Origin: Rhodopseudomonas faecalis
GTDB taxonomy: Bacteria; Pseudomonadota; Alphaproteobacteria; Rhizobiales; Xanthobacteraceae
Direction: 5' to 3'
Assembly (NCBI RefSeq): GCF_003217325.1
Contig: NZ_QJTI01000004.1
Coordinates: 62,001 to 126,000 of the forward strand
DNA length: 64,000 bases
A program made the translations under genes and the position numbers. The notes under the pieces were generated by a model. It was not told the DNA's origin and did no database searches. It worked only from the letters and a program-made list of their open reading frames with translations. This document shows, in pieces, positions 3,774 through 8,228 of this stretch (its first letter is position 1; each line of letters begins with the position of its first letter).

Positions 3774-6026
3774 TCAGTCCTGAATCTTCGAGAAATCCGC
3801 GACCGCGCGGGTGGCGGCACGGATTTCGTTGAGGAGTTTCAGGCGGTTTTCGCGCACCGCCTTGTCCTCGGCATTGACCGTGACCTTGTCGAAGAACGCA
3901 TCGACCGCCGGCCGCAGCTTGGCCATTGCCGTCATCGCCGCCGCAAAATCTTCTTTAGCGACAGCCGCGCCGGCTTCCGACTTGGCCGCGTCAATCGCGC
4001 CCGCCAGCGCCTTCTCCTCATCCTGCGCATAGAGCGATGGGTCCGGCGCGCCGTCATAGGCGCGGCCGTCCTTCTTCTCTTCGATCCGCAGAATGTTGGC
4101 GGCACGCTTGGTGCCGGCCAAGAGGTTCTTGCCGTCGTCGGTGGCAAGGAATGCCGCGAGCGCCTCGACCCGGCGCACGATCATCAAAATGTCGTCCTGA
4201 CCTTCGAGCGCGAACACCGCGTCAACCAAGTCATGGCGCGCGCCCTGATCGCGCAGTTGCACTTTGAGGCGGTCGGCGAAGAAGGAGAGGAGATCGCCAA
4301 TCCGCGCTGTCTCCCAACCGAGCTCGCCCGCATCGACGCGGAAAGTCAGTTGCACGGCGCTCCGACTGGATAAGCCTGAGAAATCCACAAGACCGGAACG
4401 ATGTCTTTCCGCGATCAACTCCTCAAGTTCAGGACGCTCATCAGCAAAGCTTCCTTCTGTCAGCCTCAAAAGCCGGAATATCAAGAAGCGCAGATGCTGA
4501 CGCACCACTTCTCTAATCTTGATACTGCTCTGATTATCTATCAGCAGCCTAATCACACCCAGCGCCGCACGGCGCAGTGCATAGGGGTCCTTGCTGCCGG
4601 TCGGCTTTTCGTCGATCGCCCAGAACCCGACCAGCGTATCGAGCTTATCGGCGAGCGCCACCGCGATCGAAACCGGATCGCTCGGCACGCGGTCGTTCGG
4701 CCCCTGCGGCTTGTAGTGTTCCTCGCAGGCCGCGGCGACGGAGGCATCTTCGCCTTGAGCGAGCGCGTAGTACTTGCCCATCAGGCCCTGCAGCTCAGGG
4801 AATTCACCGACCACTTCGGTGAGCAGATCGGCCTTGCACAGCTTGGCCGCGCGCTTGACCTTCTCGACATCGGCGCCAACCAGCGGCGCGATCTCGGCCG
4901 CCAGCCGTTCGATGCGCGCGACGCGCTCGGCCTGGGTGCCGAGCTTTTCGTGGAACACGATCTGATCGAATTTGTTCAGCCGGTCTTCCAGCTTGGTCTT
5001 CAGATCGGTCTCATAGAAGAATTTGGCGTCGGAGAGCCGCGCGCGGATCACGCGCTCATTGCCGGCGGTGATCTTTTGGCCGCCATCGCTCGCCTCGATA
5101 TTGGCGGTGAGGATGAAGCGGTTGGCGAGCTGCCCGGTCGCCGGATCGCGCACCACAAAGCACTTTTGGTTGTTGCGGATGGTGGCGCGGATCACCTCGC
5201 CCGGGATCGACAGAAATTCCTTGTCGAACGATCCCATCAGCGCCACCGGCCATTCCACCAGCCCCGACACTTCGTCGAGCAAACCGGGGTCTTCGACCAG
5301 TTCGAGATTCTGCGCCTGCGCCAGCGTTTTGGCATCGGCCAGAATGATGTTCTTGCGGCGCTCCGGATCGAGCACCACTTTGGCGTCGAACAGCTTTGAC
5401 TCATAATCAGCAAAGCGGCGCACGCTGATCTCGCCCGGTGCCATGAAGCGATGGCCGCGCGTCACCTGCCCGGCCACAATGCCGCTGACGTCGAAGCGCA
5501 CCACGTCGGGCTCCTCGGTGTCGATGCCGAAGGTCGCGACGATCGAATGCAGCGGCCGCACCCATTGCAGCGCGCCCGGCTTGGCGGAGCGCTCGCCCCA
5601 GCGCATCGCCTTGGGCCACGGGAAGGTGCGCACGATCACCGGCAAAATGTCGGCGAGCACGTCGATCGCCGGCCGACCCGGCTTTTCGATCAGCGCGATG
5701 TAGAAATCGCCCTTCTTCGGATCAGACTGGATCTTAGCCTCGCTGAGCGAGGCTAGGCCGGTCGCTTTCAAGAAGCCCTGCACCGCGGCATCCGGCGCGC
5801 CGACCTTCGGGCCCTTGCGCTCGTCCTTGAGATCGGGCTGCCGCGCCGGAATGCCATGCACCACCAGCGTCAGCCGCCGCGGCGTCGCGAACGCCTTGGC
5901 GCCCTCATAGACCAGCCCCTCGGCCACCAGCTTGTCGGTGACAAGCCGCTTCAAATCGTCTGCGGCTTTCGCCTGCATCCGCGCCGGGATTTCTTCGGAA
6001 AACAGTTCGAGCAGAAGGTCAGGCAT
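3774..6026 (-). CDS. glyS: Glycyl-tRNA synthetase beta subunit, 750 aa
   Basis: The beta subunit of the alpha2beta2 glycyl-tRNA synthetase, which binds and helps charge tRNA-Gly. The start [17 protein letters not shown] and the motifs [14 protein letters not shown]-type [44 protein letters not shown] and [11 protein letters not shown] are diagnostic. At 750 residues it is longer than the usual 690-700. The excess falls around residues 491-570, where base composition drops sharply (56 G+C in 120 bases at 4441-4560, against 43 in 60 at 4861-4920). The usual order is glyQ-glyS; here a fic gene lies between them and overlaps the glyS start by 8 bases, so glyS translation may be coupled to fic. 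Confidence 0.96.
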
Positions 6027-7188
6027 GGTCTTTTATACCAGATATGGCGTTGAGGATTTCACGGGCCGCAAAGAACTTGGGGTTGCTGGTCCCCGTGAAC
6101 TCGTGAAGTACGTTTGCAGAAAGTAATGTATCGACATTGAGCTGGGCCGCTCGATAGGTGACACCCAGATGCTCCGCGATCTGCGGGATGCTCAATATTG
6201 GTGAGCGGAATAGCAGATCGACGATGTTAAGCAGATTGGCTGATCGGCCAGCTTTTTGTAACCGCTCGCGATAGTCCCGCTGCACTGCGAGCAAACGATC
6301 AGCCGTCGCGACCGCGGCATGGCAGGACTGCGTCACCATATCAAGGAAGAAGCGGATCCAGCCGATCCAATCTCCCGTTTTGGAAACGTTGTACATCCGA
6401 TCGATGTATTCGTCTTTCCGCCTCTCGAGCGTCGGGCTGAGATAGAGGATCGGCTGCTTGACGACCTTCGCCGCGAACAGGTGCAGCGTGATCAGCATAC
6501 GACCGACCCGTCCATTGCCATCGGCAAATGGATGAATCGTTTCAAACTGGTAATGGATCAAGGCTGCGTCGACCAGCAGCGGCAGTCCATTTCGGTCGTC
6601 GCGATGGATGAACCGCTCTAGATCGCTCATGCAGGCGATGGTCTGCTCGCGGGGCGGGGGCACGAAGCGAGCGTTTTCGATTTCGTAGGCGCCAATGAAG
6701 TTCTGATATTGCTTGAACTCGCCGGCGCGAACAGTTGCGCCGCGTTGCCTAGCCACTCCCCCCAACAGTGTGCGATGGGCATCGCACAGCGTCCGCAGCG
6801 ACAGCGGGCAGTCGTCCAAGCTCTCGATCGCCGCGGAAAGGGCCCGTCGATAATTGAGGACTTCCCGGGTGTCCGGAGCCCTGTTCTGTTCGCCGGCTCC
6901 CGCCTCGACGAGCAGAAGATCGCTTAGCGTTGTGTACGTGCCCTCCATACTGGACGACGTAAGGGCCTCCTGCACCTGCAGAGGTCGGATCAGAAGATAG
7001 GGGTCGGGCAGAGTGCGACCGATCCCATTGAGTTCGCCTAGCGCCTGAGCGGCTTGGGCGATCGGCTCGGCCAGAACCGCCAGATCAATCTCGGCCGGCG
7101 GCAGCGGATTGGGCACAAACGCCCATTGGTTCCGCTCCGTGGGAACCAAGCGTCCGCTTGGGGAAGCCTCAAACTCGGCCTTTTTCAT
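6019..7188 (-). CDS. Fic-domain AMPylase-type protein with C-terminal winged helix, 389 aa
   Basis: Fic enzymes transfer AMP (or other groups) from nucleotides to hydroxyl side chains. The complete active-site motif [12 protein letters not shown] is at residues 219-230. The inhibitory motif S-x-x-x-E-G is at 78-83 (SSSMEG), placing it among the self-inhibited Fic proteins with an N-terminal inhibitory helix. Residues 320-372 look like a winged helix-turn-helix ([22 protein letters not shown]), so it may bind DNA. It sits between glyQ and glyS, overlaps glyS by 8 bases, and is lower in G+C (34 of 60 at 6241-6300) than its neighbours, consistent with insertion into an older operon. The substrate is unknown. 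Confidence 0.93.
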
Positions 7189-7209
7189 TTGATAGCATCC
7201 AAAGCGACC

Positions 7210-7241
7210 GGATTATACAAAAGGGAGCTTTCTTATAATCC
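7210..7241 (-). promoter_or_regulatory. Inverted repeat / candidate operator and -10 region for fic
   Basis: Perfect 8-bp arms GGATTATA (7210-7217) and TATAATCC (7234-7241) are separated by 16 bases, 22 bases upstream of the fic start. On the fic strand the proximal arm reads TATAAT, a good -10 hexamer, which would put transcription start about 15 bases before the ATG. A palindrome over a -10 box is a typical autorepressor site; the fic product has a winged helix that could bind it. The regulatory role is inference. Confidence 0.5.
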
Positions 7242-7286
7242 AGTGCCGCGGGGCGATAGACAAGTATGATGCGAGCTCAGCTCGCC

Positions 7287-8228
7287 TCACCCCGCCCGGC
7301 CCGCCTCGGTGTGCACCCAGGCTTCGCCGCAGGCTTTGGCCAGTTCGCGCACGCGCAAGATGTAGCTCTGCCGTTCGGTCACCGAGATCACGCCGCGGGC
7401 GTCGAGCAGGTTGAAGGCGTGGCTGGCCTTGATGCACTGGTCATAGGCCGGCAGCACCATCAGATGGCTGCGCGTGCCATCCTTGCCATCGCTTTGCCAG
7501 CCGGCCGCGAGATATTTTTGGCAGGCGGCCTCGGCCATCCGGAACTGCTCGAACAGCATCTCAGCGTCGGAATGCTCGAAATTGTGCCGCGAATATTCCT
7601 GCTCTGCCTGCAGGTACACATCGCCATAGGTGACCTTGTCGGCGCCGTCGCGGCCGTTGAAATTGAGGTCATAGACCCGGTCAACGCCCTGCACATACAT
7701 CGCCAGCCGTTCCAGGCCGTAGGTCAGTTCGCCAGCCACCGGCGCGCATTCCACGCCCGCGACCTGCTGGAAGTAGGTAAACTGCGACACTTCCATGCCG
7801 TCGCACCAGCACTCCCAGCCCAGCCCCCAGGCGCCGAGCGTCGGACTCTCCCAATCGTCCTCGACAAAGCGGATGTCGTGCAGATGGGCGTCGATGCCGA
7901 TCGCAGCCAGCGACTTCAAATACAGGTCCTGAATGTCCGGCGGCGACGGCTTCAGGATTACCTGAAACTGATAGTAGTGCTGCAGCCGGTTCGGGTTCTC
8001 GCCATAGCGGCCATCCTTGGGCCGGCGCGAAGGCTGCACATAGGCAGCGTTCCAATGACGCGGACCGAGCGCGCGCAAGGTGGTGGCGGGATGGAAGGTG
8101 CCGGCGCCGACTTCCATGTCGTAGGGCTGCAGGATGACGCAGCCATAGTCCGCCCAATAGCGCTGCAACGCCAGGATCAGCCCCTGAAACGAACGTTCGG
8201 GGCGCATGTGCGGGGGGAGAGAATCCAT
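7287..8228 (-). CDS. glyQ: Glycyl-tRNA synthetase alpha subunit, 313 aa
   Basis: The catalytic subunit of alpha2beta2 glycyl-tRNA synthetase: it activates glycine with ATP and loads tRNA-Gly together with GlyS. Diagnostic stretches are [79 protein letters not shown] and [10 protein letters not shown]. Its length is normal for the family. An alternative start at MRPERSF, 7 residues in, is possible. glyS lies downstream, separated by the inserted fic gene and a 98-base gap. Confidence 0.96.

What the first reader, a model, noticed from the sequence alone, without database searches (positions are those of the whole stretch)
6019..7188. Fic AMPylase inserted between glyQ and glyS, overlapping glyS
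The two subunits of one enzyme are normally adjacent. Here a self-inhibited Fic gene of lower G+C separates them and overlaps the glyS start by 8 bases, linking a possible translation-modifying enzyme to glycyl-tRNA synthetase expression.
Basis: partly seen in the sequence, partly recalled or inferred. Interest (0 to 1): 0.65.

Follow-up and report, generated by a model that had tools for sequence, protein, structure and literature searches.

The report
Toxin-like Fic enzyme inside glyQ–glyS
A self-inhibited protein-modifying enzyme of the SoFic type sits between the two genes of glycyl-tRNA synthetase; its closest relatives found, in ten genomes of five bacterial families, sit at the same spot behind a matching DNA switch, although the gene seems to have moved between families.

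Summary
In detail: glyQ, fic and glyS lie on one strand, and fic and glyS share 8 bases. The protein is a full-length SoFic-type class II Fic AMPylase with intact active-site and inhibitory motifs and a C-terminal winged helix. One premise is weak: glyQ and glyS lie within 50 nt in only 13 of 52 readable genomes. The reading as one local insertion is too narrow. All 10 homologs found at about 60% identity or more (nine genera, five families) lie next to glyQ, 9 of them also directly before glyS. None of 111 loci at 52% or less does. The fic and glyQ trees disagree, so fic appears to have moved between families but always to this site. All ten carry a palindrome of about 32 bp upstream of fic (weak in one); its arms co-vary, and a recognition-helix residue (R or P, position 346) switches together with an operator base. 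I conclude that this is an autorepressed SoFic module resident in the glyQ|glyS junction, probably a growth-arrest or anti-phage toxin, spread by recombination across conserved flanks. Whether it acts on glycyl-tRNA synthetase is open: no GlyQ or GlyS residue tracks its presence.

The parts
7287..8228 (-). glyQ, glycyl-tRNA synthetase alpha subunit (upstream gene)
   Evidence: Pfam PF02091 471 bits, NCBIfam NF006827 493 bits
7189..7286 (-). glyQ-fic intergenic region (98 bp), leader and presumed promoter of fic
   Evidence: 111-nt strand 7180-7290 folds at -37.8 kcal/mol, z -3.8; consensus scan found no sigma-70 site on this strand
7210..7241 (.). palindrome, putative Fic operator: GGATTATA-N16-TATAATCC; the arms contain TATAAT
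   Evidence: one site per genome in 6 of 6 genomes searched; palindrome in 10 of 10 glyQ-linked fic genes; arm covariation score 0.277 against 0.099 shuffled, 0 of 500
6019..7188 (-). fic, SoFic-type class II Fic AMPylase with C-terminal winged helix, 389 aa
   Evidence: PADLOC SoFic 359 bits; model pLDDT 90.5, Z 40.4-40.6 to SoFic 3eqx/3zcn over about 355 residues
6940..6957 (-). inhibitory-helix motif, residues 78-83 (SSSMEG)
   Evidence: S78, S79, E82, G83 invariant in 38 sequences; residue check
6499..6534 (-). Fic active-site motif [12 protein letters not shown], residues 219-230
6067..6240 (-). winged-helix domain, residues 317-374, with recognition helix 345-357 (R346 at 6151-6153)
   Evidence: secondary structure of the model; R/P346 tracks operator base 3 in 10 of 10
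6019..6026 (-). 8-bp overlap of fic stop and glyS start (ATGCCTGA)
   Evidence: fic stop lies -20 to +7 bp from the glyS start in 9 of 9 members that have glyS downstream
3774..6026 (-). glyS, glycyl-tRNA synthetase beta subunit (downstream gene)
   Evidence: Pfam PF02092 631 bits, TIGR00211 784 bits

Best explanation
fic encodes a SoFic-type class II Fic AMPylase that lives as a one-gene module in the glyQ|glyS junction. The protein is held off by its own N-terminal inhibitory helix. It also limits its own synthesis: its winged helix binds, as a dimer, the palindrome between glyQ and fic and represses the fic promoter (inferred, by analogy with CccR). Transcripts that reach fic also reach glyS, and the near-zero spacing couples glyS translation to fic (inferred). 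When released, by phage infection or stress (inferred), the enzyme AMPylates a cellular target and stops growth. The module moves rarely between bacteria; because the glyQ 3' part and the glyS 5' start are conserved, recombination across these flanks puts it back at the same site (inferred). Shown here by sequence: domain set, intact active site, purifying selection, site fidelity, tree conflict, and a co-varying palindrome with a matching recognition-helix residue. Not shown: DNA binding, AMPylation, target, phage defence, transfer mechanism.
For: SoFic identity: Pfam Fic_N and Fic, PADLOC SoFic 359 bits, E 8.8e-108, whole-length fold match Z about 40, invariant E82/G83 and active-site residues. 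Selection: dN/dS 0.06 to G014. Site fidelity: 10 of 10 homologs at about 60% identity or more are at glyQ, 9 of them directly before glyS; 0 of 111 loci at 52% or less (92, 12, 7). Movement: fic clade G188+G711+G680 (families f1, f16, f42) has support 1.0, whereas glyQ places G188 with the window's group (0.905); fic identity G188-G711 is 75% against 59% for G188-G000, glyQ 82% against 88%. Operator: palindromes upstream of 35 of 77 non-redundant homologs (p<=0.05) against 11 of 120 other genes and 9 of 77 regions downstream of fic; covariation score 0 of 500 shuffles; one site per genome; R/P346 with A/T operator base in 10 of 10. Published analog: CccR (Fic plus HTH) represses its own gene through AGATAATCAT-N26-ATGATAATCT (PMC9755527, passages). 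Sofic is described as a toxic anti-phage protein (PMC12249575; abstract, introduction and results read).
Against: No experiment was run. The NCBIfam SoFic equivalog model scores 176 bits against a cut-off of 550. The E. coli antitoxin AS1 has no room here, because glyS follows directly. Defence genes around the members were not sought. No recombination tract is visible in the flanks. The consensus scan found no sigma-70 site on the fic strand. 42 of 77 homologs have no palindrome at p<=0.05. In one search two of five measures are less extreme (pairs changed on both sides 49 of 500 shuffles; further pair types 18 of 500), and I chose the arm register by eye. The palindrome of G680 is weak. 12 of 251 variable columns separate the two operator types, so R/P346 is not unique, though it is the only one with a single residue on each side. 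G575 keeps fic at glyQ but not at glyS. The glyQ tree is a single-gene tree that itself mixes families (G566 falls among f1 genomes).
Confidence: 0.6

Rival explanations
1. A dedicated regulator of glycyl-tRNA synthetase: Fic AMPylates GlyQ, GlyS or a partner, and its operator tunes glyS expression, so the gene stays at glyQ-glyS because it works on that enzyme.
For: Position kept in 10 of 10 close homologs over five families despite apparent transfer; near-zero spacing to glyS in 9 of 9 that have it downstream; one operator match per genome, at this locus only, in 6 of 6 genomes.
Against: The module is rare (6 of 391 family genomes; 5 of 397 order genomes; both counts include the own genome; 1 of 28 in family f16), so it is dispensable. 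No GlyQ/GlyS residue separates fic+ from fic- genomes: 10 against 22 for glyQ, 9 against 22 for glyS. G575 lacks glyS downstream. No paper in the library holds both 'AMPylation' and 'glycyl-tRNA synthetase'.
Confidence: 0.2
2. Passive cargo in a permissive junction: the glyQ|glyS gap tolerates many single genes, and fic is one of them with no special tie.
For: 35 of 52 readable junctions are over 200 nt. Occupants named by Pfam in ten proteins tested: DUF559 (four genomes), CDGSH, MFS, glutamate symporter, glyoxalase, DUF4262, DUF2207.
Against: One fic lineage (support 0.954) is at glyQ in 10 of 10 genomes spread over five families, while 0 of 111 other homolog loci are there. Random capture would not keep one lineage at one site.
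Confidence: 0.15
3. The gene is ancestral at this site in the order and was lost many times; no horizontal movement is needed.
For: Site and palindrome are shared over five families. fic and glyQ identities correlate across pairs (r 0.64).
Against: The fic and glyQ trees conflict on supported splits (G188 with G711 and G680; G216 with G575). Presence is about 1-4% in each sample, requiring very many losses.
Confidence: 0.15

Closest known systems
SoFic / Sofic (PADLOC SoFic; Shewanella SO_4266, E. coli EcSofic)
   Same: Fic_N, Fic and winged-helix domains over the full length; inhibitory glutamate; HPFxDGNGRxGR; fold Z about 40. Single-gene module.
   Different: 26-27% identity to SoFic in the fold alignment; below the NCBIfam equivalog cut-off. 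No downstream AS1-type small gene; glyS is in that place. Fixed genomic site.
CccR of Yersinia pseudotuberculosis (Fic toxin and autorepressor)
   Same: Fic plus C-terminal HTH; inverted repeat near the promoter boxes. CccR site AGATAATCAT-N26-ATGATAATCT (PMC9755527, passages).
   Different: Here the repeat has another sequence and a shorter spacer (16 bp between the outer arms in G000 and G014), and binding is untested. CccR is a secreted type VI effector; secretion was not examined here.
CbFic2 (class II Fic with HTH, DNA-stimulated)
   Same: Class II motif TSAIEG, Fic motif HPFDDGNGRIGR, C-terminal HTH (PMC10628234, passages); fold Z 28 (8cil).
   Different: About 18% identity. CbFic2 was tested with random DNA; the passages read name no specific site.

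Membership tests
Class II Fic AMPylase | Fic motif HPFx(D/E)GN(G/K)RxxR | tested here: met
   H219-R230 [13 protein letters not shown]219, P220, D223, G224, N225, G226, R227, G229, R230 invariant in 38 sequences
Class II Fic AMPylase | N-terminal inhibitory motif (S/T)xxxE(G/N) | tested here: met
   S78-x3-E82-G83
SoFic | Fic_N, Fic and C-terminal winged helix in a SoFic-like whole-length fold | tested here: met
   Pfam Fic_N and Fic above cut-off, HTH_13 just below (24 against 26.1 bits); Z 40.4-40.6 to 3eqx/3zec/3zcn over about 355 residues
SoFic | PADLOC SoFic profile | tested here: met
   358.9 bits, E 8.8e-108, profile 6-358 of 361; PADLOC's own cut-off is not shown by the tool
SoFic equivalog NF046030 | NCBIfam curated cut-off (550 bits) | tested here: not met
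   175.8 bits: same kind, not that equivalog
SoFic | protects against phage / toxic when expressed | not testable with these tools
   needs plaque and growth assays
Fic autorepressor (CccR-like) | inverted repeat in the own promoter region | tested here: met
   the promoter itself was not shown
Fic autorepressor (CccR-like) | protein binds that repeat and represses | not testable with these tools
   only indirect: R/P346 tracks operator base 3 in 10 of 10
EcSofic-AS1 toxin-antitoxin | small antitoxin gene directly downstream | tested here: not met
   fic stop lies -20 to +7 bp from the glyS start in 9 of 9 members with glyS downstream

The most novel reading that the evidence does not exclude
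A SoFic lineage has made glycyl-tRNA synthetase its partner. glyS takes the place that the antitoxin gene holds in E. coli, GlyRS is the sensed or modified target, and the glyQ-operator-fic-glyS cassette travels between families as a unit that always returns to its own essential operon. That would be a homing-like anti-phage or growth-arrest module without a homing nuclease.
Probability: 0.17. Interest if true: 0.85.

Novelty: new variant of a known kind. Interest (0 to 1): 0.6.

Why it matters
PMC12249575 (introduction) says that Sofic protects against phage by unknown mechanisms. A lineage fixed beside one essential enzyme names a first target to test. The palindrome and the R/P346 switch make autoregulation of a defence-type toxin directly testable, and palindromes upstream of 35 of 77 homologs suggest that it is common in the family. 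The case also shows a gene that seems to move between families yet keeps one site inside an essential gene pair.

Tried and rejected
Early reading as a recent single insertion in two sister species: rejected after the family-wide search.

GlyQ/GlyS residues that mark fic+ genomes: none better than a frequency difference of 0.46. Recombination tract in the flanks: not seen. Remnant of a DUF559 gene in the fic junction: no match better than E 0.5. glyS ribosome site: not distinctive (-2.9 kcal/mol against -10.4 to +0.3 in others). Close fic homolog on mobile DNA: none listed (phages: 44 records, all under 60%; plasmids: 1046 records, best listed 43%, one unlisted record in the 60-80% identity band not looked at; viral contigs: best long matches 30-41% among the 80 kept of 110). 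Papers with Fic, glyQ and glyS: 0; AMPylation with glycyl-tRNA synthetase: 0.

Full report
Observation. glyQ 7287-8228, fic 6019-7188 and glyS 3774-6026 all lie on the minus strand; the glyQ-fic gap is 98 bp and fic and glyS share 8 bp. fic has lower G+C than its neighbours (58.5% against 63.5 and 62.8%; GC3 68.5% against 81.5 and 79.0%).

The protein. Pfam finds Fic_N and Fic, with HTH_13 just below its cut-off. PADLOC's best match is SoFic, 359 bits. NCBIfam's SoFic equivalog scores 176 against a cut-off of 550, so the protein is of that kind but not that equivalog. An AlphaFold2 model from 38 sequences has mean pLDDT 90.5. It matches SoFic structures over about 355 residues with Z 40.4-40.6, and a Mycobacterium marinum Fic (7cb8) with Z 40.9; CbFic2 (8cil) scores 28. 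E82 and G83 of the inhibitory motif and the active-site residues are invariant in the 38 sequences. dN/dS is 0.06 to the sister genome G014, whose fic dS (0.095) is close to that of glyQ (0.099). Four more distant pairs give 0.03-0.10, but their dS exceeds 2 and is saturated; one further pair could not be computed.

The junction in relatives. Of 61 genomes, 52 have glyS downstream of glyQ on the same contig and strand; the matched ends are within 21 nt in 11, within 50 nt in 13, within 200 nt in 17, and further apart in 35, the two fic carriers included. Among 16 genomes held for the genus, 2 carry fic there, 11 carry an ORF that looks like DUF559 (Pfam-tested in two of them, L006 and L007; the others by reading), and 3 have contig breaks. 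Ten junction proteins were tested with Pfam: DUF559 in four, and CDGSH, MFS, glutamate symporter, glyoxalase, DUF4262 and DUF2207 in one each. A tree of glyQ and glyS puts G000+G014 outside a clade of G020 (adjacent genes) plus the rest of the genus, so fic and DUF559 are probably separate arrivals.

The key turn. A search of 296 family genomes found four closer homologs in four other genera, 88, 73, 66 and 60% identical; all four lie between glyQ and glyS. Sampling 391 family genomes gave 7 matches at E<=1e-90, of which 6 are at glyQ|glyS; the seventh, G322 (49%), is not. Sampling 397 order genomes gave 12, of which 5 (the window's own and G575, G566, G711, G680; 60-62%) are at glyQ; the other 7 (47-52%) are not. 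385 class genomes gave only the own genome, and 28 genomes of family f16 gave only G711. Together, 10 of 10 homologs at about 60% or more sit at glyQ, and 0 of 111 loci at 52% or less do (92, 12, 7; some of these loci are short and show little flank). G000 and G014 are near-identical, so nine are independent. In 9 of 10 fic is followed by glyS with a spacing of -20 to +7 bp; in G575 another gene follows.

Movement. The ten fic proteins form one clade (0.954) whose inner order conflicts with glyQ: G188 (family f1) groups with G711 (f16) and G680 (f42) at support 1.0, and G216 (f1) with G575 (f31) at 0.998, whereas glyQ groups G188 with the window's group (0.905) and G575 with G680 and G711 (0.972). 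These are single-gene FastTree trees, and the glyQ tree itself places G566 (f14) among f1 genomes. No recombination tract is visible. Between the members compared, the conserved stretch of glyQ at about codons 261-300 is 80-95% and the first 20 codons of glyS 77-93% identical in DNA, which could serve for homologous exchange (inference).

The operator. The 98-bp gap holds a palindrome, GGATTATA-N16-TATAATCC at 7210-7241. The sister genome has 12-bp perfect arms. All ten members have one, 12-58 bp before the fic start by the arm finder (6 bp in G216, where the finder ran on beyond the core); that of G680 is weak. Over nine sequences (eight distinct), with arms taken in a register chosen by eye, the 13 pairs are 92.3% standard pairs with covariation score 0.277 against 0.099 in shuffles (0 of 500); cells changed on both sides 11 against 4.9 (0 of 500). 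Two other measures are less extreme (49 and 18 of 500). Sliding the arms destroys the pairing. The relaxed pattern occurs once per genome in 6 of 6 genomes, only here. In 77 non-redundant homologs, 35 have an upstream palindrome at p<=0.05 and 42 do not, against 11 of 120 upstream regions of other genes (120 drawn from 148) and 9 of 77 regions downstream of fic. The first, redundant version gave 45 of 90 against 10 of 90 (4 of 94 loci dropped for lack of a usable gene or upstream DNA). The fic upstream regions are poorer in G+C (0.44 against 0.51), which the per-sequence shuffles allow for.

Recognition. Residue 346, second in the recognition helix 345-357, is R in the six members with half-site xxATTATA and P in the four with T at that base. 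On the fic tree the P/T state arose at least twice (G236; G188+G711+G680) by parsimony on the tree. Of 251 variable columns 12 separate the two groups, but only 346 does so with one residue on each side. This supports direct binding but is not proof.

Literature. CccR, a Fic toxin with HTH, represses its own gene through AGATAATCAT-N26-ATGATAATCT (PMC9755527, passages). The CbFic2 paper states that DNA binding had not been shown for SoFic (PMC10628234, passages). Sofic of E. coli is toxic, is counteracted by a 47-residue downstream protein, and its family is described as an anti-phage system (PMC12249575; abstract, introduction and results read). In the library searched, no paper holds Fic with glyQ and glyS or AMPylation with glycyl-tRNA synthetase.

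Verdict. An autorepressed SoFic-type module with a fixed address in the glyQ|glyS junction. The autoregulation and the site fidelity are supported by sequence. The toxin or defence role is inferred from the family. Action on glycyl-tRNA synthetase is the boldest reading left open, with one null result against it.

Noticed in passing
L006-L010, L013-L016, L019, L021 (junctions of the genus): In 11 of 13 readable genomes of the genus a DUF559-like ORF sits between glyQ and glyS, in several ending at the glyS start; DUF559 is also there in G019 and G055 of other groups (Pfam run on four of these ORFs).
   Followed up: partly
L023, L025, L027, L101, L107 junctions: Other relatives carry small proteins that look like CDGSH iron-sulfur proteins at the same junction (Pfam-tested only in L025; the others by reading).
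   Followed up: partly
L115, upstream of position 5001: A Rhodovibrionaceae MAG has a perfect palindrome with 29-bp arms and an 8-bp spacer just upstream of its Fic gene.
   Followed up: no
L224, upstream of fic (G767): A 47% homolog that is not at glyQ carries a similar TTATAC-AAA...TTT-GGTATAA inverted repeat, so this operator type may be older than the glyQ address (seen by eye).
   Followed up: no
L225 (G575), 791-1942: In G575 the gene after fic is not glyS but an ORF that reads like an M20-family peptidase such as DapE (named from memory, not searched); glyS was not found in the 6 kb taken.
   Followed up: no
L006-L019 junction gaps: GC-rich elements of the kind CCCTCCCC...GGGGAGGGT recur between glyQ and the DUF559 ORFs of the genus (seen in the sequences printed).
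   Followed up: no
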